Source of the DNA: Myxococcales bacterium
GTDB taxonomy: Bacteria > Myxococcota_A > Bradymonadia > UBA7976 > UBA1532
Direction: 5' to 3'
Length of the DNA: 64,000 bases
Assembly: GCA_002731825.1 (NCBI GenBank)
Contig: PCCS01000045.1
Location: forward strand, 1 to 64,000
The position numbers and the translations under genes were made by a program. A model generated the notes under the pieces. It worked only from the letters and a program-made list of their open reading frames with translations, was not told the origin of the DNA and did no database searches. Shown here piece by piece: positions 22,929 through 33,610 of this stretch. Position 1 is the stretch's first letter; every line of letters begins with the position of its first letter.

Positions 22929-24011
22929 CTAGTTCCCCAAGGCTTGGCAGCGAATTCTAAGACTCAAGATGTCAGTATGACATGTCCGGCACCCGTTCGC
23001 ACTCACTTCGAGGGCTTTACCACATCGAAAACGCCTCGGGTGCGGTGAAGCTCGGAGGCTTTGTGGAGCCCGGGTCGAATGACAGCGCACGCAATCATTG
23101 GGACTATGGCAGGTCGCACAAGAACTGAGGTCTTTCTGAGCGGCAAAGGCATGATGTTGCATCCCTCTCGCCCGGCCAGGCGTGCCTGTAAAGCCCGGTG
23201 GATGAAACGAGAGTCGACCGTTAGTTCGTCCAAATTGCTTGGGACCTGGTGCGGGGTTGAGCCCGGCCCGGCTATGGCAGTCTCGGCAGAAGGTGGCTGG
23301 TTGATGACAGCTTGAGCAGCTGGTTGGGTCATGACGCGCATCGACTGAGTGATAGCGAATGTAGTCGCCTTGGTGGACACCAATGCGAGTGTCTAACTGG
23401 TGGCACGTCGTGCATTCATCGGGGGTATGACAGCTTTGACATGCTTGTGTACGGGTTCTCGCTTGGAGCCCGTGATTGGTTTTGAATTCGGTATGGTGAA
23501 ATAGATCGGGGAGAACACGTTTAGATGGAAAAAGGTTTTTGGATCCGAATCGTATTTTTAACGCGCCACCAGCTCGTGTCTGATGGCATAAGTCGCATCG
23601 GTTGCTGACCTTTTTTCGGCTATGGCAATCCATGCATTGCTCCATGAACGGTGTTGCTAAAGTGCCATCTTTTTCAGGGGAGTGGCAGCTGGTACAGGCG
23701 ATGGTCTGAGTATGTAAGCGATGACTGAATTGAATCCCCTCAGCTTGTCTCCAGGAACTAAGTTTAGGTGAATGATGAGGCTTCACTGGAGAGGATAAAG
23801 CCTGCTTTGTCCCTAAATGGCAGCGTTCACAGCCGGAGTTATGTATCGTCGAAACAACAGCATCTTCGGAGACTTTTAATGGGTCGCACGATGCACAAAC
23901 GCGCCCAGTCGACGGTGTTGAGTCGAGACCGATAACGTCGTCGAGTGGCGGCGCCGCCAGGGCGTGCGCCACGAACAGAAGACAAAAGGCAAATCGTATG
24001 ATTAATTTCAC
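22929..24011 (-). CDS. Periplasmic multiheme c-type cytochrome (11 CxxCH motifs)
   Basis: The 360-residue protein has a Sec signal peptide (HALAAPP) and I count eleven CxxCH heme-attachment motifs (CERCH, CTSCH, CMDCH, CDLCH, CQSCH, CTTCH, CSSCH, CRDCH, CATCH, CVRCH, CRTCH), plus a CASCD near the mature N-terminus. Many other His residues could serve as distal ligands. Motifs tend to come in close pairs, as in cytochrome c3/c7-like and doubled-CXXCH proteins. It should carry electrons in the periplasm. Its ATG overlaps the stop of the beta-barrel gene upstream, which invites comparison with porin-cytochrome conduits. Confidence 0.88.
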   Translation of the reverse strand: MKLIIRFAFCLLFVAHALAAPPLDDVIGLDSTPSTGRVCASCDPLKVSEDAVVSTIHNSGCERCHLGTKQALSSPVKPHHSPKLSSWRQAEGIQFSHRLHTQTIACTSCHSPEKDGTLATPFMEQCMDCHSRKKVSNRCDLCHQTRAGGALKIRFGSKNLFPSKRVLPDLFHHTEFKTNHGLQARTRTQACQSCHTPDECTTCHQLDTRIGVHQGDYIRYHSVDARHDPTSCSSCHQPATFCRDCHSRAGLNPAPGPKQFGRTNGRLSFHPPGFTGTPGRARGMQHHAFAAQKDLSSCATCHSPNDCVRCHSTRAPQSLRASPHPRRFRCGKALEVSANGCRTCHTDILSLRIRCQALGN

Positions 24012-25372
24012 CAGAAATTCTCCATACGGACAGCCAAGAAAATACGGACATGATCTGACCCAGGCATGCCGGTAAAGCCTTCAACGGCAAGTTGGCTGAG
24101 AACACCATCATCCGGGCGCCAGTCCACGCCTGCTAGCCCCCAACTTGAAAGTCCCGACCAAGGCGATGACGATCCCTGGCTGAGTTGCGCGACTCCCAGC
24201 CGGCTGCGAATGGACACTCTTGAGAAAGACACGTTGCTTGTCAATGGAATGACCGCATGCGTCGAGAGCGCGGAGAAATCCCCACCATAGCCACGGCTGA
24301 TGTGTCCTTGAATGCCCACTAAGCCTTGTTGTGTACGACCCCCATTGAAGCGATAGTTGGCGAACAATGACCCCCTTTTTGCCGTGTTCTCCTTGGACCA
24401 GTCGGCTGTTTTGAAGGGCTCTAAGCTGGACAACTGGGTTTGGAAAAGCGTTCCATCGAGCCGTCCGCCCATTCGGAGTTGTCCAACGCGTTTCGATGCG
24501 CTCATGGAGGCGGCATGATGTGGGGCCGGTGCGAAGGCAACCCAGATACTGTCCGCATCGAATCTAGGTCTTAAATAGGCTGCTTCAACGGACACTCGGT
24601 TTTGATTCCAAGATAACCCTGTCTGGATACGCCACTCGGAGATATTTTTGAAAATTAAGTCCGTGCAGATCAAGACGGTATTGCTTGACCAGGGAGTGGG
24701 TTCGAACACGGCCGACGCTGAGATTTCCTCTCTTTGCAGTTGGTCGTTGAAGTGTCGACGATAGCCGAACTCCGTGTGAATGGCGTCCATGACGTCAAGG
24801 CGCAGGCGACCTGCGACGAGATATCCCCGTTTACGTTGCTCGCCGGCGACAGGTGATGGCAAGAGATAGCCGAAGCGAGCCGTACTCGGTCTCAGAGTTT
24901 GTCCCACGCGGCCGGTGAGATTAATTTTTGAGAACGGCGCGATGTCTAAAGACAGCCCATCGAGTGCACCTGCGCCGAAGGCATCCCAAAATAGATGCCT
25001 ACCCAGTGTTAAGCGACTGCGCGGAATCAGCTTGAGCAGGGTCACCGACCCCTGATAAATTTCCAAAGTCGTCCGGCGTCCGCTGCCCCACTGGCGGTAG
25101 TCTTCCGCGGCCGGGGCAATATCGCTCGACACCGCCATATCGACGCGTGTGATGATCGACTCATCACCGGGAGTGCCTTCGAAAACATGAAGTCGCAAGC
25201 GGTGATTGATATCCGTCGTTTCGACGGTAGATTCGTAGCCAGAATACCACCTATCCATACGTAGAACGGTGTCTAGTTTAAGGTGGTAACGTTCCGCATT
25301 CACGTCCATCACGAAACCGAAGGACATCAGAAACGCGCAAAGTCCTATTTTAAGATAGTTGCCCTTGAACAC
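24008..25372 (-). CDS. Outer-membrane beta-barrel protein
   Basis: From the GTG at 25372 the 454-residue product opens with a signal peptide (KIGLCAFLMSFGFVMDVNA) and then continuous amphipathic beta strands ending in a C-terminal aromatic residue (MENFW), the usual mark of an outer-membrane barrel. Starting at the far-upstream ATG (25549) would add a non-secretory leader. No CXXC motif near the N-terminus marks it as MtrB. It is first in the operon with an 11-heme cytochrome and could be its outer-membrane sheath, or a separate porin. Confidence 0.75.
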   Translation of the reverse strand: MFKGNYLKIGLCAFLMSFGFVMDVNAERYHLKLDTVLRMDRWYSGYESTVETTDINHRLRLHVFEGTPGDESIITRVDMAVSSDIAPAAEDYRQWGSGRRTTLEIYQGSVTLLKLIPRSRLTLGRHLFWDAFGAGALDGLSLDIAPFSKINLTGRVGQTLRPSTARFGYLLPSPVAGEQRKRGYLVAGRLRLDVMDAIHTEFGYRRHFNDQLQREEISASAVFEPTPWSSNTVLICTDLIFKNISEWRIQTGLSWNQNRVSVEAAYLRPRFDADSIWVAFAPAPHHAASMSASKRVGQLRMGGRLDGTLFQTQLSSLEPFKTADWSKENTAKRGSLFANYRFNGGRTQQGLVGIQGHISRGYGGDFSALSTHAVIPLTSNVSFSRVSIRSRLGVAQLSQGSSSPWSGLSSWGLAGVDWRPDDGVLSQLAVEGFTGMPGSDHVRIFLAVRMENFW

Positions 25373-25422
25373 AGCAGTTGGACTTTCGCGTCGATGACGC
25401 ACCAGGTTGTCGACTGGACACC

Positions 25423-25451
25423 ATGTTAGGGTCCTTGGCGCAAGTGTGCAA
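25423..25451 (-). promoter_or_regulatory. Candidate promoter of the beta-barrel/cytochrome operon
   Basis: Read on the minus strand, TTGCAC (25446-25451) and TAACAT (25423-25428) are separated by exactly 17 bases, a sigma-70-like arrangement giving a leader of about 45 bases. The -35 hexamer lies inside the first copy of an 11-bp direct repeat, so repeat binding could directly affect this promoter. Confidence 0.4.
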
Positions 25452-25470
25452 TGATTGGTCAAGTGTGCAA
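25441..25470. repeat. Two 11-bp direct repeats in the divergent pil/cytochrome control region
   Basis: CAAGTGTGCAA occurs exactly at 25441-25451 and again at 25460-25470, with starts 19 bases apart (nearly two helical turns). A related copy in the opposite orientation, TTGCACTGTTG, lies at 25544-25554. The arrangement is what a regulator binding two faces of one DNA side would need. The region separates the leftward cytochrome operon from the rightward pilin cluster. Confidence 0.55.
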
Positions 25471-25604
25471 AAAATGCATAGTTGAACAGGTCTTTTGGCA
25501 AACAAGTATGCGTCTTTAAGGGGTGGTTAATTAGGTCCGAATCTTGCACTGTTGATACGTTGACTTCGATGCACTGGAATTGAGTCGCTTAATGGGGGAG
25601 GCCG

Positions 25605-26294
25605 TTGTTGAGTAGCAGAAACGACTACAAACCAATTTATCCCGCGGGCCGGCGTGTCAAACGCGCTCGGCATACGCAGGCCGGCTTTACTATCGGAGAG
25701 CTATTGGGTGTTGTCACCATCATCATCGTGATTACGATGTTGGCCTATCCATCGATGCGGACATTTAGCGGCGGCGCCGCAGCGAGTGGGGCCGCGACTC
25801 GATTGACCCACATGTTCAACCAAGCACGGAGTCAGGCCATGCGGCGAAATCGAGCCGTTATCGTTGACTTTCTCTTGTTTCGGGCCGGTGTCCCGGGCGG
25901 TCGAGTGGACTTTTTGGAAGCGCGCACAAATGCATGTTCAACCGCGAGTCAACAAATTCTAGAAGAGGGCAATGCGGCTGCTCTATATTTGAACTCGGTG
26001 CTCGTCGGTGGAACCGCGATTCCGGGTTACAAAGGGACCAATGAAAAAAATATTGGCTTCATTGGGTGGCGGAGGGGCTCTGGCGGTGCCTTGACGGCCA
26101 ATCGGCTCCGACTGTGCTTGAGTCCTGGTGGTCAGACCTTCATCGTAGCCCCTAACTTGCAAACCCTCGACCAGTTTGTCGAAGTTCGCGTTCAACGCTA
26201 CAAGGCCCGGGGCGAGGCTTTCGACGGGGTTGGCCCCGCCAGGCGGATCATTTTTCCAGGTTTTGGAGCTGCACGAATGATGGTGAGCCAATGA
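25605..26294 (+). CDS. fimT: GspH/FimT-type minor pilin
   Basis: The 229-residue pseudopilin has a prepilin peptidase site AG|FTIGE at about residue 27-33 and the long N-terminal hydrophobic helix that packs in the pilus core, followed by a globular domain typical of FimT/GspH (TRLTHMFNQARSQAMRRNRAVIVDF). Start is TTG at 25605 or the next codon, behind GGGGAGG. It leads a coupled cluster of minor pilins; FimT homologues in other bacteria help start pili and may bind DNA. Confidence 0.85.
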   Translation: MLSSRNDYKPIYPAGRRVKRARHTQAGFTIGELLGVVTIIIVITMLAYPSMRTFSGGAAASGAATRLTHMFNQARSQAMRRNRAVIVDFLLFRAGVPGGRVDFLEARTNACSTASQQILEEGNAAALYLNSVLVGGTAIPGYKGTNEKNIGFIGWRRGSGGALTANRLRLCLSPGGQTFIVAPNLQTLDQFVEVRVQRYKARGEAFDGVGPARRIIFPGFGAARMMVSQ

Positions 26295-26842
26295 GTCGCC
26301 GTCGACAAAGAACCGCTGGATTTACCGTTGTCGAAGTTTTGATCGCGTCCGGTGTCGCCGCTGTCGGTTTTGCGGCTCTGTTCTCCCTTCAGATGGGGAC
26401 AATGCTGGCCAATATTTCGGCGCGTGACATGTCGGCGGCGATGACTCTGGCAGAGCGGCACGTCGATGTTTTACGCACAGAGAGCTTTGCATGGATTGGA
26501 GACCAGCGCCCAGGACCACATCTCAATAAAGATGTGAGGCGCTGGCATAGTTTTGGTGATTACCCCATTGACCACAATGGACTTGCCTATATCGAAGATG
26601 ACGACGAGTTCGGGAGTGCGGTCAATCGACAGCGCTTCTGTGTTCATTATTGGTTCGAGCCGTTAGACGGGCTCTATGCACAATTGCTCAATGTTCGGAT
26701 CCGCGTTGTCTGGTCAAAGAACCCGCTGGATGCAAATGAAATGAGAACGGTGTGTCCAGAGCAAGGGGCGCAAGAGTTTCGACCAAACGTGGCAAAGTAC
26801 TACTCCGTCGTCGTACCGTCGGTGATTCGGAGTGCCCAGTGA
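26291..26842 (+). CDS. pilV: PilV-type minor pilin
   Basis: The 183-residue product has a short basic leader and prepilin site AG|FTVVEVLIA near residue 10, followed by a helix and a region resembling PilV/PilI (MTLAERHVDVLRTE). It overlaps fimT by four bases and pilW by four bases (GTGA). In pili of the PilVWX type these minor pilins form the tip or priming complex with PilY1. Confidence 0.85.
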   Translation: MSRRRQRTAGFTVVEVLIASGVAAVGFAALFSLQMGTMLANISARDMSAAMTLAERHVDVLRTESFAWIGDQRPGPHLNKDVRRWHSFGDYPIDHNGLAYIEDDDEFGSAVNRQRFCVHYWFEPLDGLYAQLLNVRIRVVWSKNPLDANEMRTVCPEQGAQEFRPNVAKYYSVVVPSVIRSAQ

Positions 26843-28065
26843 GTGTCAGAATGGGCAGACAACGGATAAATATGAGATCGCAAGGCGGCTTCACTTTTGT
26901 TGAACTCTTGGTCGCGCTGTTGTTTGCAGGGATTGTTATGGTGGCAGCCTACCTGGTGTTTATAACGGCCAGTCGCCAGTATTACGCGCAAGAGCAAATC
27001 GTGCAGATGCAGGAGAGTATGCGTTTTGCCCTTGAATACGTCAAAAATGATTTGAGAAGCGTGGGTCGACTGTCCGTTGTCAATGGGATCGAACTGGGTG
27101 GTCGAGTGGATCTCGTTGGTCGAGATCCACGATTTTGCTCTACGCGTTCAGGGCATCGGGCTATCGAGCTGCTGGAACGCCCTCAGGATACGCCTGAATC
27201 TCTCATCCGCTTCGGCAATAATTTACGGCCAGACCGCCTCCGCTTACTGGTCGACCGTTCCGAAGGCGTGACGTACACAATCTCGCGGGTCAATCGGCGC
27301 CAGGTTTTATTAAATCTTACAGACCAGCGAACGCAGAAAGCCCGCGAGTCGCTCACCCGATTCATGTATTTCTCTGATCGTGCGTACGTCCACATTGTAT
27401 CCCCATCTGGTCAAAGTGATTTGGTTGTTGCTGAGGTGCGCTCACGAGGCGACGACGAGGTTGAATTACGACTCTCAGATGATCTCTGCCTCGCAGGTGA
27501 GCCAGCGCTGGCTGCGGAGTGCGCGCCTGGAGGGTGTCTCATCACACCAGTTCAGTTGGTCGAATATGCGATTCTTGAAGCGACACCTGAATTCGAATTG
27601 GCGCCTCAAACGGACGATGCAACTTTTCTGGTTCGTAGGACACTAGACCCGGTGTCGCTGGAGCCGAGCGAGGACGCGATGGTCTTGGCACCATACGCTG
27701 TTAATTTTCAGGTTTGGGCATCGTACGATACGCGCAGTTTGGCCGTTGGAGCTGACCCCAGACCCATCATCCCGCAGGACCAAGACCCGACGGATGATCG
27801 AGGTAATTGGACGACGGAACGTGAGAGCCAAATCTTAAACGAGAGACCACAGCGCATTAGAGGACTGAACGTGATGCTGGCTATCCGCACCCCACGGGAG
27901 GACGAAACCTTTCGTGTGGCTCCTGACCAAGCGATGGCTGCCGGAGATCGCATTGGTGCTGACCGAAGTTGGTTTGAGCTCAGTCAGGACGCGGGCACCG
28001 GATTGGCTCGCGTGATGACCCTGAAAACTGAGGTTGAGACACCCAATATGTACCGGGGCGAATGA
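26839..28065 (+). CDS. pilW: PilW-type minor pilin
   Basis: I choose the GTG at 26839, which overlaps the pilV stop as GTGA and puts the prepilin site (GG|FTFVELLVA) about 15 residues from the start; the longer frame would lie inside pilV. The 408-residue protein shows the PilW-like YYAQEQIVQMQESMRFALEYVKNDLRS segment after the hydrophobic helix and a large globular part. It is a minor pilin of the tip complex. Confidence 0.88.
   Translation: MSVRMGRQRINMRSQGGFTFVELLVALLFAGIVMVAAYLVFITASRQYYAQEQIVQMQESMRFALEYVKNDLRSVGRLSVVNGIELGGRVDLVGRDPRFCSTRSGHRAIELLERPQDTPESLIRFGNNLRPDRLRLLVDRSEGVTYTISRVNRRQVLLNLTDQRTQKARESLTRFMYFSDRAYVHIVSPSGQSDLVVAEVRSRGDDEVELRLSDDLCLAGEPALAAECAPGGCLITPVQLVEYAILEATPEFELAPQTDDATFLVRRTLDPVSLEPSEDAMVLAPYAVNFQVWASYDTRSLAVGADPRPIIPQDQDPTDDRGNWTTERESQILNERPQRIRGLNVMLAIRTPREDETFRVAPDQAMAAGDRIGADRSWFELSQDAGTGLARVMTLKTEVETPNMYRGE
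27106..27130 (+). other. Perfect 10-bp inverted repeat inside pilW
   Basis: GTGGATCTCG (27106-27115) is followed after a 5-base loop by its exact reverse complement (27121-27130). In RNA this would form a stable hairpin within the coding sequence. There is no T run after it. It may be chance, a pausing element or a processing site in the long pil message. Confidence 0.4.
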
Positions 28066-28742
28066 TGGGACAACGATTCACACGAAAGCGTCAGCGTGGC
28101 GGTGCGTTAATCGTCACTGTGGTCGTCCTGCTTGCTCTGCTTGCCGTGGGCATGATGGCGATGCGTTCGGCGACCCAGAATATGAGCAGTTCAGGGAATT
28201 TAAGACTCTCGATTCAAGCACGCCATGTCGCTGAGATCGGTCTTTATCATGCGGTCACTCTAATGAATCGTCAGGCCTCGGTCTTACTGCCGCTTCGTGA
28301 TGGGCCGGGCATGGAATGGTCGACTCTTAAGATTCAAAGTCCGGTGCAAGATGCGGGCGCAGCCCGCGGGCGAGTTGACGTTTATAATCGGGAGGGCAAC
28401 CGTCTTTCAGAACGCACGATGGCGGCGCCGCCCTTTTTTAGCTCTGGCCCCGCTCCACTCGGTGTAGCGGGTGAGGCGACTGGCGTTCAGCCGAGCTACA
28501 GTGTCTCTGTGACAGGATTTCAACCCTGGACGTGTCCACCGGGTCATGATGAACGGACGCTGCGTCGTAATGGACAGGGATGTTGCCTCATGCACTTTGA
28601 ATCACGCGCCGTCATTTCGGCTGATGAAGAACCCAATGCGGAGCAGCTCGATGACCGACTCGCCGCTGAGTTATTTGCAGAGCATACGATGAAAGCAGGC
28701 GTCGTGATTGGTCCAATTACGATGAGGGGATGTCGTCGATGA
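28062..28742 (+). CDS. pilX: PilX-type minor pilin
   Basis: The 226-residue product starts with the PilX_N pattern: a basic leader, RGGALIVTVVVLLALLAVGMMAMRSA helix and the polar segment AEIGLYHAVTL. As in other PilX proteins the processing site has Gly-Gly rather than a strict GF..E motif. It overlaps pilW (ATGA) and precedes the PilY1-like genes in the usual order. Confidence 0.82.
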   Translation: MMGQRFTRKRQRGGALIVTVVVLLALLAVGMMAMRSATQNMSSSGNLRLSIQARHVAEIGLYHAVTLMNRQASVLLPLRDGPGMEWSTLKIQSPVQDAGAARGRVDVYNREGNRLSERTMAAPPFFSSGPAPLGVAGEATGVQPSYSVSVTGFQPWTCPPGHDERTLRRNGQGCCLMHFESRAVISADEEPNAEQLDDRLAAELFAEHTMKAGVVIGPITMRGCRR

Positions 28743-31195
28743 AAAAATATCTCTATATCGCGTTATTTTTGGGTTGGCCAGCCGTCGCTTTTGGCCAGGA
28801 CAATTTACCGCCTGAGGTCATGTTTCTGATCGACAATTCAGCATCGATGCGTCTGTCTCCAACATCGCCTCGACCTGACAAACTGCCAGACTGCAACGAA
28901 TCATTCGAGGTGAGGGAGCGTGACGTTGACGGTGTCATCGAGCGGAGAGTCACGCTTTCTGACGAACCGCTCATCCAGACCCGTCATCTGAGCGCATTAC
29001 AAATGGTGCGGAATGTCATCGGTGGCAACCCCATCAACAATACGGGAGATCCAAATTTAATAACCTGCTTTCGAGACAGAGCCGAATTCCCCCGTAATGT
29101 AGCGCAAGCGGGCTACCTGGAGTTAGTCAACGCCGGTCGCGTTATGGGCGATGAAGCGCTGGTTATCCCAGACCCAAATGATGCGGGTGAGGCTATCTTT
29201 TATCGCAATCTTCAAGGCCAATGCTTTGACTTTGACCCTCGACAGCCTGATGCATGTCGGCCCATCAGGCTGGTGGACGAGAATACGCCCGATGTCCGTT
29301 TTGCCAATGACAGCGCTCTGGAGCGTTATGCGACCCGAGTGAAGTTTGGGATGATGACATTAGACGATGACCCAGGCGCCTCTCGAACGTGGCCCCGTCT
29401 ACTTGGCCGAAATAGTTCTTTTGGCACGGACGAAGGGGCCACTCGACAGACTGTCGCCGCCGCGAATCAACGTTTTCCCGGACTATTAGATAATGCATTT
29501 ATCGTCAATCGGTTATCAGCACCAGATGCCGTCAACGCTCCGAATTTGGGCGCTCGCGGTCCAGGTGGTGGCCAGCCCGGTGACTTAATCGCTAGCAATA
29601 CGGGTGACTTGCTCAATGGAACCCGAAGACCATTTGAACCGATTGCCGATGATGGTGTGAGCTTGGAGCGTCATACCAACTACATTAAACACCAGGTTCG
29701 GCGTTTGACATCATTCGGCTTCAGCCCACTGACGGGCCTGGTTCATGATCTAAAATACTATTACGAGACCCAGTCCGGCGCGGCGGCGAATCGCTTTGGC
29801 TTGCTCCCAGACTTAAATTACGCACGCCGAACCCACGTTGCTGTTCTCATTACCTCCGGTGACGAAACTAATTTTTACGGAAGTCGGAATTGCGTTCGAA
29901 CTGGGTTTAGATGTGAGACACCCCCATCCTTTCCTTACGAGTCAATGCAGTCGTACGTCGATACGATGCGTGAAACTGTTCCTGGTTTTCGTTTTGTGAT
30001 CATCGGAGTCGGACTAGATGATGCACGGCGAGATGATTTACGTACTTTGGTCACCAATGACGGCGATCTCTTCAATGTCACGTCGATGGACGACATGCGT
30101 AATGCCATTGAACGGGTTTTAGTCTCTCTTGACGCGGACCGTAAATCGAAAGTCATGCCCTTGGTGATTACACCTGACCGAGGCGATGATGTTGACGACC
30201 AGGTTCGGCAGCTCCGAGTTGTCGCCTATAGTACTCTGGCGAGTAGCGCGCGCTACGGTCGTATTGATGTGTCGGCCTTTGGGTGTCGAAGACAGGCTGG
30301 CCAACCCGACACCGGGCGACTGAAGCTCATCGACGGTCAGTCCGTTGATCTAGCAGTTAAACTGGCCGAACAAGACACCCGCACTGTTGTTGGCAACGTT
30401 CACAAGCGGCCAAACGGCGTTGGTGAGCCTGGGTTTACTGCCCTTGGGAACGGAAACAGCCTTTTTGCTTCAGACGGCGATTATCGAGGGGCTGCGAGCT
30501 TAAATGAAGCTGATTTTAGAGATCTCGCAGACATCGAAGAGGGGGCGCCAGGTGATAGCCTTATGGAGATTGCCTTCAAAGCATTGTCAGGCTATGTCGG
30601 CCCTGCAGCGACCCCGGAGAATCGTGGTGAGTGTACACCGGCTTGTGGACCTGACCCGGACAATGTTCGACAGCTCGGTGAGATCATTGAAGGTGATTTG
30701 ATCGCAGTGACGCCACCCCGACTCGCAGTCGACAGCCCAGGCTATCGACGCTTTGAACAAGAGCAGAGCGAACGGCCGACTCTCATCGTGAGCGGCGCCA
30801 ATGACGGGCAAGTTCATTTTTTCAGGGCCTCCGACGGACGCGAGGTTTTCTCTTTTGTTCACCGCCGGGCGATTCCGAATCTAAAACATGGTGTTGAAAA
30901 TCCTGCTCGGATGGGTGCGGACACGCGTCTTGCGAATCGAGATATGCTCCTGTGCCGAAGTGTGGATGGCGATGGCGCGGGAGATTGCCCATCGGATAGT
31001 GAAAATTTTGTTTTTCGGACCATCGTGGCTGGCGCACTTGGCGAGTCAGGTCGAAACGTATTCGCCATAGACATTACGGATGCGTTGCCCCAGACCAAGG
31101 CGAACACACAGGATCAGCCACTCGCGCACGATACCATTAAGGCCTGGGAGGCAGGACTGGGTTATCAAGGGGCTGCAGGGGGGGCAGGGCGATGA
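28739..31195 (+). CDS. PilY1-like protein, N-terminal half (von Willebrand A domain)
   Basis: The 818-residue protein begins with a signal peptide (cleavage near AVAFGQ) and a von Willebrand A domain with the MIDAS motif DNSAS (32-36) in EVMFLIDNSASM. The last 120 residues contain PilY1-type propeller strands (LIVSGANDGQVHFFRASDG, GRNVFAIDITDA), then stop. The rest of the propeller is encoded by the next gene. I chose ATG 28739, which overlaps the pilX stop and stands 9 bases after GAGGGG. PilY1 sits at the pilus tip in adhesion and surface sensing. Confidence 0.87.
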   Translation: MKKYLYIALFLGWPAVAFGQDNLPPEVMFLIDNSASMRLSPTSPRPDKLPDCNESFEVRERDVDGVIERRVTLSDEPLIQTRHLSALQMVRNVIGGNPINNTGDPNLITCFRDRAEFPRNVAQAGYLELVNAGRVMGDEALVIPDPNDAGEAIFYRNLQGQCFDFDPRQPDACRPIRLVDENTPDVRFANDSALERYATRVKFGMMTLDDDPGASRTWPRLLGRNSSFGTDEGATRQTVAAANQRFPGLLDNAFIVNRLSAPDAVNAPNLGARGPGGGQPGDLIASNTGDLLNGTRRPFEPIADDGVSLERHTNYIKHQVRRLTSFGFSPLTGLVHDLKYYYETQSGAAANRFGLLPDLNYARRTHVAVLITSGDETNFYGSRNCVRTGFRCETPPSFPYESMQSYVDTMRETVPGFRFVIIGVGLDDARRDDLRTLVTNDGDLFNVTSMDDMRNAIERVLVSLDADRKSKVMPLVITPDRGDDVDDQVRQLRVVAYSTLASSARYGRIDVSAFGCRRQAGQPDTGRLKLIDGQSVDLAVKLAEQDTRTVVGNVHKRPNGVGEPGFTALGNGNSLFASDGDYRGAASLNEADFRDLADIEEGAPGDSLMEIAFKALSGYVGPAATPENRGECTPACGPDPDNVRQLGEIIEGDLIAVTPPRLAVDSPGYRRFEQEQSERPTLIVSGANDGQVHFFRASDGREVFSFVHRRAIPNLKHGVENPARMGADTRLANRDMLLCRSVDGDGAGDCPSDSENFVFRTIVAGALGESGRNVFAIDITDALPQTKANTQDQPLAHDTIKAWEAGLGYQGAAGGAGR

Positions 31196-32526
31196 GTCGA
31201 CGGATATGGACTAAGTGTACGTGGGTCAGATCGCGGCTGCTGATGCCCGCCACCCTAGCTATTTGCTTTGCAGTCGGGACATTGAGCATCCCAATGAAAG
31301 CGACTGCACAAACTTTAGAAAGTGGATATCACGTCAGTGAAGTCCCCTTTGGAAAAACCGTTTCAAGACCGGCTCTGACCTATGTTCGAGTCGGCAATCA
31401 GGTCGTGGCCGCAATGATCGTTGGCTGCGGGGGAGGAACCCCGACGCGGGAGAGCAATGGCCAAGCACTCCAAAACAACACCGGTGGGCGCTGCGTACAA
31501 ATTAGAAAAATCTCAGATGGGAGCCTGATCCGCGCATTCTATACAGGCAATGGGCTTAAGGATGGCGATCAGATGCTGTACCCAATGATCGGGTCGCCCA
31601 GTGTGTACCCAGTCATTGGTCTTGCACCGGCCAGTCGCGCGTACTTAGGTGATGCCATGGGGCGCCTCTGGCGGATTGACCTGCGTTCCGCAAATCCAAA
31701 CCTATGGGAGATGAGTATTGCATGGCCCATTCGTGATGATGCCGAATCGGAGTTTTATCAGATCGGGCGTGAGATCACTGCAAGACCTGCGGTGTTTCAG
31801 CGTGAGAATGGACAAATTGGGATCATTTTTGGGACCGGTTATTCTTATCGTGCAGAGGCCAGCGCCCCCCATCTTTTTAGCCTTTCAGATGTCCTGGCCC
31901 TGGGTGGCAATGACCGCCTTGAGTTCCAGTCTAAACTGGTTTGGAAAATGCCTTTAAGACAAAAAGAACAGCTGAGTGGTGAGGTGTCGGTACGGAGTGG
32001 CGGTGCCTATTTTACGACGGTCGAGACAGGCCCGTTCAATGATGGAAGTACGCTTGAACGGGGCCGGCTCTATGGTGTTCATGTGGATAAGACGGCCGAT
32101 AATTATTTTACAACTGATGGGCGTGTGCAGAACGTGGTGCCGATCCTTCCGACATTGGTCACGAATGATGGCCAGAGGGTGACCGACGCCATTGCGATCC
32201 GTCTCCCGAGCGGACGTGTCGCTTTTGGAGTCGCACTCGTGGTCAGTCCATCTTGCCGAGAGGATGAAGAGCCGACAACGGAAGTCATTCTTAATTTGGC
32301 GGCCGGTCGCGGGGGAAACGGCCGCGGTGGCGGTGGTGCTCGAATCGAACGAAAAACAGGTGAACTCGTGCCAGGTAATCTGGATGATGACTTTCTATCC
32401 GATGGCAAAAATGATGTGGCTATCAAAATTGCCTCGCCGGGAGGAGAAGACACCCCTCGCGTCGGCGGGTCTGCAGCTCCCTTTCCCCGACGCGTCTTGT
32501 ACTGGGGCAGTAGCTACGTTCAGTAG
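31192..32526 (+). CDS. PilY1-like protein, C-terminal propeller half as a separate secreted protein
   Basis: The 444-residue product has its own signal peptide (about residues 15-40, cleavage near ATAQT) followed by sequence that continues a PilY1 beta-propeller: YPVIGLAPASRAYLGDAMGRLWRIDL matches the blade that normally follows the point where the upstream protein ends. It overlaps the upstream gene by four bases in another frame (ATGA). The separate signal peptide argues for a genuine two-gene design rather than a recent frameshift. Gly-rich stretch near 375-385. Confidence 0.8.
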   Translation: MSRRIWTKCTWVRSRLLMPATLAICFAVGTLSIPMKATAQTLESGYHVSEVPFGKTVSRPALTYVRVGNQVVAAMIVGCGGGTPTRESNGQALQNNTGGRCVQIRKISDGSLIRAFYTGNGLKDGDQMLYPMIGSPSVYPVIGLAPASRAYLGDAMGRLWRIDLRSANPNLWEMSIAWPIRDDAESEFYQIGREITARPAVFQRENGQIGIIFGTGYSYRAEASAPHLFSLSDVLALGGNDRLEFQSKLVWKMPLRQKEQLSGEVSVRSGGAYFTTVETGPFNDGSTLERGRLYGVHVDKTADNYFTTDGRVQNVVPILPTLVTNDGQRVTDAIAIRLPSGRVAFGVALVVSPSCREDEEPTTEVILNLAAGRGGNGRGGGGARIERKTGELVPGNLDDDFLSDGKNDVAIKIASPGGEDTPRVGGSAAPFPRRVLYWGSSYVQ

Positions 32527-32533
32527 GTCTGTT

Positions 32534-33610
32534 CTAGAAGCGAACCTCATAGATAAGGCGGTCGCCGTCAACCAGTACAGTGGTGTCGGGATTCTTTAAG
32601 TATTTGTAGAAGCCGTACGCGCCGGCGATCAATGCCACTGCGCCAAGGCCGAAACTCAGATTGGCCATGAGTTGGCTATGCTCGAAGTCCTGACGTAGCA
32701 CACCGTCGATAGACCTCTTTTCTATCGTAGGTGCTTGGGATGCGATGTTAGCCTGCATTTCCCCTTCGAGTCTTTGGTTCTCAAGCCCATAATAACTGCC
32801 AGCACCGAGACCGACAGCGCCGACCACGCTGCCTGTTATCGCTAGGATTAATGGCCAAGAGTGCGTGCCGCCAACCTGATACTCAACACCATCATCGGTC
32901 GCCTCTGGTTGAAAGATGGGTAAGCGCTCCAAGACAAAATGAATTGGCGCGTCACCGCGCGTATTCTCGATGAACTGACTCGCTGTGGCGTATCGCCCCT
33001 TTTTGATGACCAGTTGACCCCCCTCCCGATTGACCAGACTATAACTCAATGGCGTCTGCCCGATTAATTCGCCGTCAAGAAAAACATTTGCATCCGCTGG
33101 TTGACTTGTGATGGCGGTCAGGCGATGCGGTGGGCGATACTCATTGCCATCGATGAGAGATTTCACAACATCATTCATTGCTGTGGCCATGGCACGGGTC
33201 GTCTCAAATTGAACGGTGATTGAATAGCTGATTGATTCTCTATTGACGTCGAGACCGCTTAGGGAGAGGACAAAAGGGCCATAACCTCGAATACTGCCCC
33301 AAAATAGGAAAGGTGCGCGGAACATTCGGCCCGTCTCAGCCATGCAACGTGCATTTTCATCGTCGCAGTCAAAGGTGACGCGAGCCTCATCTAAACTGAA
33401 CTCAATATTGTCTCTGACTGGCTGACGCATTTGGCGGCCGATGGCGTCTCGTAGCCTCTCATTGAGTTCGCTTTTCGAATCAAGAGCGGCCTCACTCTCC
33501 AGTGGGAGAACAACGATGGACGGCTGCCCCGAGACTGGGGCTGGAGACAACATAAACAGGATGATGAAACATGGGGCTAGACCAATGCTTTTTATCGATG
33601 GCGGTCTCAT
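32534..33610 (-). CDS. Secreted PEGA-domain protein with membrane helices
   Basis: A 358-residue protein with a signal peptide (APVSGQ), an N-terminal periplasmic domain (SIVVLPLESE, DCDDENARCMAETGR) that resembles the TolB-N-like or caspase-linked sensory regions seen with PEGA domains, and a PEGA domain at about 170-235 (ITSQPADANVFLDGELIGQTPLSYSL). Two hydrophobic segments near 255-272 and 320-338 follow. PEGA domains bind envelope polysaccharides or proteins. It overlaps its upstream neighbour by four bases. Confidence 0.8.
   Translation of the reverse strand: MRPPSIKSIGLAPCFIILFMLSPAPVSGQPSIVVLPLESEAALDSKSELNERLRDAIGRQMRQPVRDNIEFSLDEARVTFDCDDENARCMAETGRMFRAPFLFWGSIRGYGPFVLSLSGLDVNRESISYSITVQFETTRAMATAMNDVVKSLIDGNEYRPPHRLTAITSQPADANVFLDGELIGQTPLSYSLVNREGGQLVIKKGRYATASQFIENTRGDAPIHFVLERLPIFQPEATDDGVEYQVGGTHSWPLILAITGSVVGAVGLGAGSYYGLENQRLEGEMQANIASQAPTIEKRSIDGVLRQDFEHSQLMANLSFGLGAVALIAGAYGFYKYLKNPDTTVLVDGDRLIYEVRF

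What the first reader, a model, noticed from the sequence alone, without database searches (positions are those of the whole stretch)
28739..32526. PilY1-like adhesin encoded as two secreted proteins
The usual PilY1 has a von Willebrand A domain and a C-terminal beta-propeller in one chain. Here the chain stops inside the propeller and the next gene, overlapping by four bases in another frame, has its own signal peptide before continuing propeller sequence (YLGDAMGRLWRIDL). A frameshift would not supply a signal peptide. The two halves may reassemble outside the membrane, allowing tip swapping or regulated assembly.
Basis: partly seen in the sequence, partly recalled or inferred. Interest (0 to 1): 0.72.

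Follow-up and report, generated by a model that had tools for sequence, protein, structure and literature searches.

The report
Type IV pilus tip adhesin split in two
In one genus of uncultured Myxococcota, the adhesin at the tip of the type IV pilus (PilY1) is made as two separately exported proteins instead of one, cut between two blades of its propeller domain, so a force-bearing adhesin probably has to be reassembled outside the inner membrane.

Summary
PilY1-A (28739-31195) and PilY1-B (31192-32526) overlap by ATGA, and B has its own Sec-type signal peptide. The break lies in the loop between two blades of the PF05567 propeller. It is not an error: the only other genome held for this genus, an independent metagenome assembly only 43-47% identical over the shared parts, has the same break, the same overlap and its own signal peptide. 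The other genera of the family, the sister family and the rest of the surveyed Myxococcota carry one fused chain. Every other short frame checked ran off a contig, held an N gap or had an in-frame stop with no signal peptide. The tree nests the split pair among fused relatives (100/100; sister to a fused pair 100/99), so this is a derived gene fission. Both parts keep the family's invariant residues. Best explanation: A (vWA-like tip plus about two blades) and B (remaining blades plus the C-terminal strand expected to dock on PilX) are exported separately and join non-covalently into one propeller at the pilus tip. Assembly, stoichiometry and function are inferred. 'Tip swapping' has no support: one copy of each part was found. 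I found no earlier description of a conserved, signal-peptide-bearing PilY1 split.

The parts
28739..31195 (+). PilY1-A: signal peptide, vWA-like N-terminal region with DxSxS motif, then the first part of the PilY1 beta-propeller (about two blades)
   Evidence: (PF05567 profile 2-151); 27-35% identical over the shared propeller part to fused orthologues of the family
31192..32526 (+). PilY1-B: own signal peptide (about residues 1-39), then the rest of the propeller and the C-terminal region ending PFPRRVLYWGSSYVQ
   Evidence: model best PDB match 3hx6 PilY1 E=2.5e-9
31192..31308 (+). segment coding the signal peptide of PilY1-B, absent from all fused relatives (where a short variable loop lies here)
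   Evidence: analogous segment in the congener L062:3697-3593(-)
31192..31195 (+). ATGA overlap: stop of A and start of B (translational coupling)
   Evidence: same overlap in the congener
30632..30646 (+). CTPAC (Cys632/Cys636 of A): cysteine pair present only in the two split species, at the start of the propeller
28062..28742 (+). PilX minor pilin, directly upstream, ATGA overlap with PilY1-A
   Evidence: (PF14341 E=1e-7)
26752..28065 (+). PilW-like minor pilin (longest ORF shown; the N-methylation motif lies at 26872-26952, so the real start is nearer 26851)
26291..26842 (+). PilV-like minor pilin
   Evidence: (N_methyl)
25605..26294 (+). FimU/GspH-like minor pilin
   Evidence: PF12019

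Best explanation
In the ancestor of this genus the single pilY1 gene of the minor-pilin operon was divided by gene fission at a variable interblade loop, and the downstream half acquired its own Sec signal peptide. Shown: the two ORFs, the coupled start, the signal-peptide-like N-terminus, the conservation of all this in a diverged congener, the derived state relative to fused relatives, and the retained conservation of both halves. Inferred: A and B are exported separately by Sec; in the periplasm A (vWA-like distal tip plus about two blades) and B (the remaining blades plus the C-terminal strand that pairs with PilX) associate into one closed propeller; the heterodimer sits on the PilX-PilV-PilW-FimU tip complex and does what PilY1 does (priming and adhesion). 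The load from an attached tip would then cross a non-covalent A-B interface.
For: Same split, ATGA overlap and a different but equivalent signal peptide in the other genome of the genus, 43% (A part) and 47% (B) identical. Fused single ORFs of 1144-1489 aa, at the same locus next to the same minor pilins, in all family and order members with a complete frame. The split pair is a 100/100 clade nested beside the fused G012/G009 (100/99). The break lies between the W(D/E) end of one blade and the LGxxVSRP start of the next; the signal peptide is an insertion there. Of residues invariant in all fused relatives, A keeps 18 and 19 of 19 and B keeps 38 and 36 of 41. The B model's best PDB match is PilY1 3hx6, E=2.5e-9. 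PilB-, PilT- and pilin-like genes exist elsewhere in the genome. In M. xanthus models PilY1's extreme C-terminal strand pairs with PilX and the N-terminal domain is the distal tip (PMC11046646); here those ends fall on B and A respectively.
Against: No complex was predicted. The fused-propeller model was poor over the A part (mean pLDDT 50), so blade counts are approximate. Only two genomes support the genus-level claim, both metagenome-assembled, and the congener's contig ends inside A, so its A N-terminus is unseen. No conserved interchain cysteine pairing is evident: the congener's mature B has an even number of cysteines. Two MIDAS positions are substituted by Ser in this A, so the adhesive role of A is weaker by sequence than in relatives.
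Confidence: 0.72

Rival explanations
1. The halves have parted ways functionally: B alone caps and primes the pilus on PilX, while A is a detachable, optional or separately acting secreted adhesin that is not permanently in the same particle.
For: The fission separates the expected pilus-docking end (B) from the expected distal adhesive end (A); the fission point is a loop between blades, so each piece may fold in part on its own.
Against: The two genes are translationally coupled and adjacent in both species; half-propellers are not expected to be stable unpaired (general knowledge); the propeller residues stay conserved in both halves.
Confidence: 0.13
2. Degrading pseudogene: the gene was broken and the second half is translated by accident or not at all.
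For: Only one MAG per species; breaks in large adhesin genes are common; in another Myxococcota genome a lone in-frame TAG interrupts pilY1 (G201).
Against: Two diverged species share the same break and both pieces keep the invariant residues; a new signal peptide and coupled start are not decay; the G201 break lacks a signal peptide.
Confidence: 0.04
3. Sequencing, assembly or gene-calling artefact, as a 2026 survey concluded for split pilY1 entries in M. macrosporus HW-1 and S. cellulosum So ce56.
For: A run of seven G lies just before the break in this genome; MAGs carry homopolymer errors; precedent in PMC13190605.
Against: The congener's independent assembly has the same arrangement without a G run; joining the frames would leave a signal-peptide-like hydrophobic stretch inside the chain that no fused relative has.
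Confidence: 0.03
4. Frame switching: slippage at the G7 tract (replicative phase variation or ribosomal) joins A to B in some cells, so that both a fused and a split form exist.
For: G7 tract upstream of the break; neisserial PilC is known to phase-vary through a G tract (own knowledge); B's frame is open for 17 codons upstream of its start.
Against: No such tract in the congener; a joined product would hold an internal signal peptide.
Confidence: 0.05

Closest known systems
PilY1 / PilC type IV pilus tip adhesins (PF05567; P. aeruginosa PilY1, structure 3HX6; M. xanthus PilY1.1-1.3)
   Same: Same propeller family by sequence and by structure match, vWA-like N-terminal region, place after fimU-pilV-pilW-pilX
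   Different: Two polypeptides, each with its own signal peptide; no Dx(D/N)xDGxxD calcium loop in either part, nor in the fused relatives tested
Split pilY1 annotations in M. macrosporus HW-1 (LILAB_RS06745/50) and S. cellulosum So ce56 (SCE_RS10345/50)
   Same: Two adjacent ORFs covering one PilY1
   Different: Judged annotation errors in PMC13190605. In HW-1 the pieces divide the DUF4114 domain from the propeller; here the break is inside the propeller, B has a signal peptide and the split is shared by two species. Those entries were not re-examined here
Geobacter split pilin (GSU1496/GSU1497, PilA-N/PilA-C)
   Same: A type IV pilus component divided into two neighbouring genes, inferred to be gene fission from a full-length ancestor (PMC5174107)
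   Different: A different component: the major pilin, not the tip adhesin
Open or split beta-propellers completed by a partner chain (e.g. Sec13-Sec31; own knowledge, not tested)
   Same: A propeller closed by blades from another chain
   Different: Eukaryotic coat and pore scaffolds; cytosolic, not exported adhesins

Membership tests
PilY1 (PF05567) | Sequence match to the PilY1 beta-propeller | tested here: met
   Weak by Pfam alone (A E=5e-4, B E=0.044, below cut-off) but firm through orthologues: 29-51% identity to relatives, of which fused ones score up to 61 bits against PF05567; 3hx6 by profile and by fold of B
PilY1 (PF05567) | Propeller in a single polypeptide | tested here: not met
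   Divided between A and B at an interblade loop
PilY1 (PF05567) | Operon with minor pilins FimU, PilV, PilW, PilX | tested here: met
PilY1 (PF05567) | Sec signal peptide at the N-terminus | tested here: met
   A by inspection, B by inspection and heuristic; no dedicated signal-peptide predictor was available
PilY1 with vWA domain | vWA fold with MIDAS (DxSxS...T...D) | tested here: inconclusive
   DxSxS at A32 and vWA-like alignment; the T and the TDG aspartate are both Ser here; no Pfam or PDB sequence hit
PilY1 calcium-binding class | Dx(D/N)xDGxxD loop in the propeller | tested here: not met
   absent from A, B, the congener and the fused relatives tested
PilY1 (PF05567) | Located at the pilus tip; needed for pilus priming and adhesion | not testable with these tools
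   needs experiment
Gene fission pair | Derived from a fused ancestor, both parts kept | tested here: met
   tree, fused outgroups, invariant-residue retention

The most novel reading that the evidence does not exclude
A two-piece type IV pilus tip in which B is a permanent cap docked on PilX and A is an exchangeable or force-releasable adhesive head held through an inter-subunit propeller interface, so that detachment happens by subunit separation rather than by unbinding of a ligand.
Probability: 0.12. Interest if true: 0.8.

Novelty: new variant of a known kind. Interest (0 to 1): 0.5.

Why it matters
PilY1 sits where retraction force passes from the pilus to the surface. A natural, conserved break inside its propeller suggests that the covalent connection between the adhesive head and the pilus-docking end can be dispensed with. 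That makes the mechanics of the tip testable with natural parts: does the A-B interface bear load, release, or exchange? It also warns that split pilY1 annotations should not be dismissed by default as gene-calling errors.

Tried and rejected
Simple frameshift or assembly error: rejected, because the congener has the same break and its own signal peptide. Independent splits elsewhere: two Myxococcota surveys of 379 and 374 overlapping genomes gave matches in 221 and 270. Sixteen short frames were checked: 15 run off a contig at the N-terminal side and one at the C-terminal side. G372 is short because of an N gap, G201 has an in-frame TAG without a signal peptide, and G182 and G304 run into contig ends. 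Interchain disulfide: this A and its mature B each have an odd cysteine count and a CX3C pair is exclusive to the split species, but the congener's mature B is even, so no conserved bridge is supported. Calcium loop: absent. Fused-propeller structure prediction failed over the A part with only 8 sequences. The first genome-contig scan with P0002 found nothing. Apart from PMC13190605, no paper describing a split PilY1 was found.

Full report
**Observation.** PilY1-A (28739-31195) and PilY1-B (31192-32526) are as described, overlapping by ATGA. They close an operon fimU/gspH-pilV-pilW-pilX-A-B. The fimU/pilV, pilW/pilX, pilX/A and A/B junctions all have 4-base ATGA overlaps, so the new junction is of the same translationally coupled type as the old ones. 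B begins with a typical-looking signal peptide. With a crude heuristic, 5% of start codons in the window followed by at least 100 open codons pass; B passes in this genome and in its congener. No dedicated signal-peptide program was available.

**Relatives.** The window's genome is an 82%-complete MAG. Named records of the same family are deposited as uncultured Myxococcales / Myxococcota bacteria. The only other genome held for the genus, G001 (CALELH010000831.1, from ERR598995), carries the same two genes: A ends ...SWDLITRGDGLGGR*, B starts with an ATG overlapping the stop, and B has its own signal peptide MMVQLISRFRLRDRTASLALIAMIILMVFPEAALS. The shared part of A is 43% and B 47% identical between the two, so this is an old, maintained arrangement. 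Its contig ends within A.

**Ancestral state.** In every other genus of the family, and in the sister family of the order, pilY1 at the same locus is one frame of 1144-1489 aa (G006 is cut by a contig end). The tree puts the split pair together at 100/100, beside the fused G012/G009 at 100/99, inside the fused family. Fission is therefore derived. Two surveys of Myxococcota turned up no other split. Short frames were checked one by one: 15 of 16 end at a contig edge on the N-terminal side and one on the C-terminal side. The others are an N gap, a single in-frame TAG without a signal peptide (G201), and two contig-end cases. The printed tables were truncated, so rare splits among weak matches are not excluded.

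**Where the break lies.** Aligned to the fused chains, A stops just after the conserved Trp that ends a blade and B resumes at LGxxVSRP, the first strand of the next blade. The signal peptide is an insertion in a loop that varies in length among relatives. PF05567 is divided between profile positions 151 and 266 of 411, while the fused G009 matches in one stretch. The 3HX6 propeller of P. aeruginosa PilY1 aligns on both sides, and the B model finds 3HX6 first at E=2.5e-9. From strand counts, B holds about four blades plus a C-terminal part and A about two. This is approximate: the fused model was poor over A.

**Constraint.** Of residues invariant in all fused relatives, A keeps 18 and 19 of 19 and B keeps 38 and 36 of 41 in the two split species. 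Fused members left out one at a time keep 41 of 41-48 in B. Neither half looks abandoned.

**Mechanism (inferred).** Published M. xanthus models place the PilY1 N-terminal domain at the extreme tip and attach the extreme C-terminal strand to PilX by strand addition (PMC11046646; also PMC13190605). In this genus those ends lie on different chains: A has the vWA-like region with DxSxS, and B ends PFPRRVLYWGSSYVQ, a segment conserved in the family and predicted as a strand at the end of the B model, in a low-confidence stretch. The simplest reading is separate Sec export, then joining of the blades in the periplasm into one propeller on top of PilX. Pulling force would then cross a non-covalent interface. 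A CX3C pair (A632/A636) unique to the split species sits at the start of the propeller. Whether it matters is unknown, and no conserved interchain disulfide is implied.

One A and one B were found in the genome, so nothing supports tip swapping. Translational coupling argues for joint production. The vWA assignment is plausible by alignment but not detected by Pfam or PDB searches, and two MIDAS positions are substituted.

**Precedent.** A 2026 survey of Myxococcota PilY1 treats two split entries as annotation errors (PMC13190605). Gene fission of a type IV pilus component has been proposed for the Geobacter pilin (PMC5174107). I found no report of a conserved two-protein PilY1 in the papers held.

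Noticed in passing
22929-25549 (-): A multihaem cytochrome c gene (11 CXXCH motifs in 360 aa; Cytochrome_C7 hit) and a second, possibly outer-membrane, protein gene stand divergently beside the minor-pilin operon. Relatives of both genes keep this place next to fimU in several genera of the family. It may be a porin-cytochrome electron conduit, or a functional link to the pilus as with the cytochrome TfcP and PilY1.1 in M. xanthus.
   Followed up: partly
32534-33610 (-): The PEGA-domain gene next to pilY1 faces the operon in both split species (this window and L062), whereas in most fused relatives it lies downstream on the same strand as pilY1; a rearrangement coincides with the fission in this genus.
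   Followed up: partly
L103 (G201:C154:57000-63000): pilY1 interrupted by a single in-frame TAG inside the propeller with no signal peptide after it: a contrast case that looks like decay, error or readthrough.
   Followed up: partly
29852-29860 (A residues 372-374): The MIDAS-like TDG motif of fused relatives reads TSG here, so metal binding by the vWA-like region may be altered or lost.
   Followed up: no
31178-31184: Run of seven G just before the stop of PilY1-A; absent in the congener.
   Followed up: no
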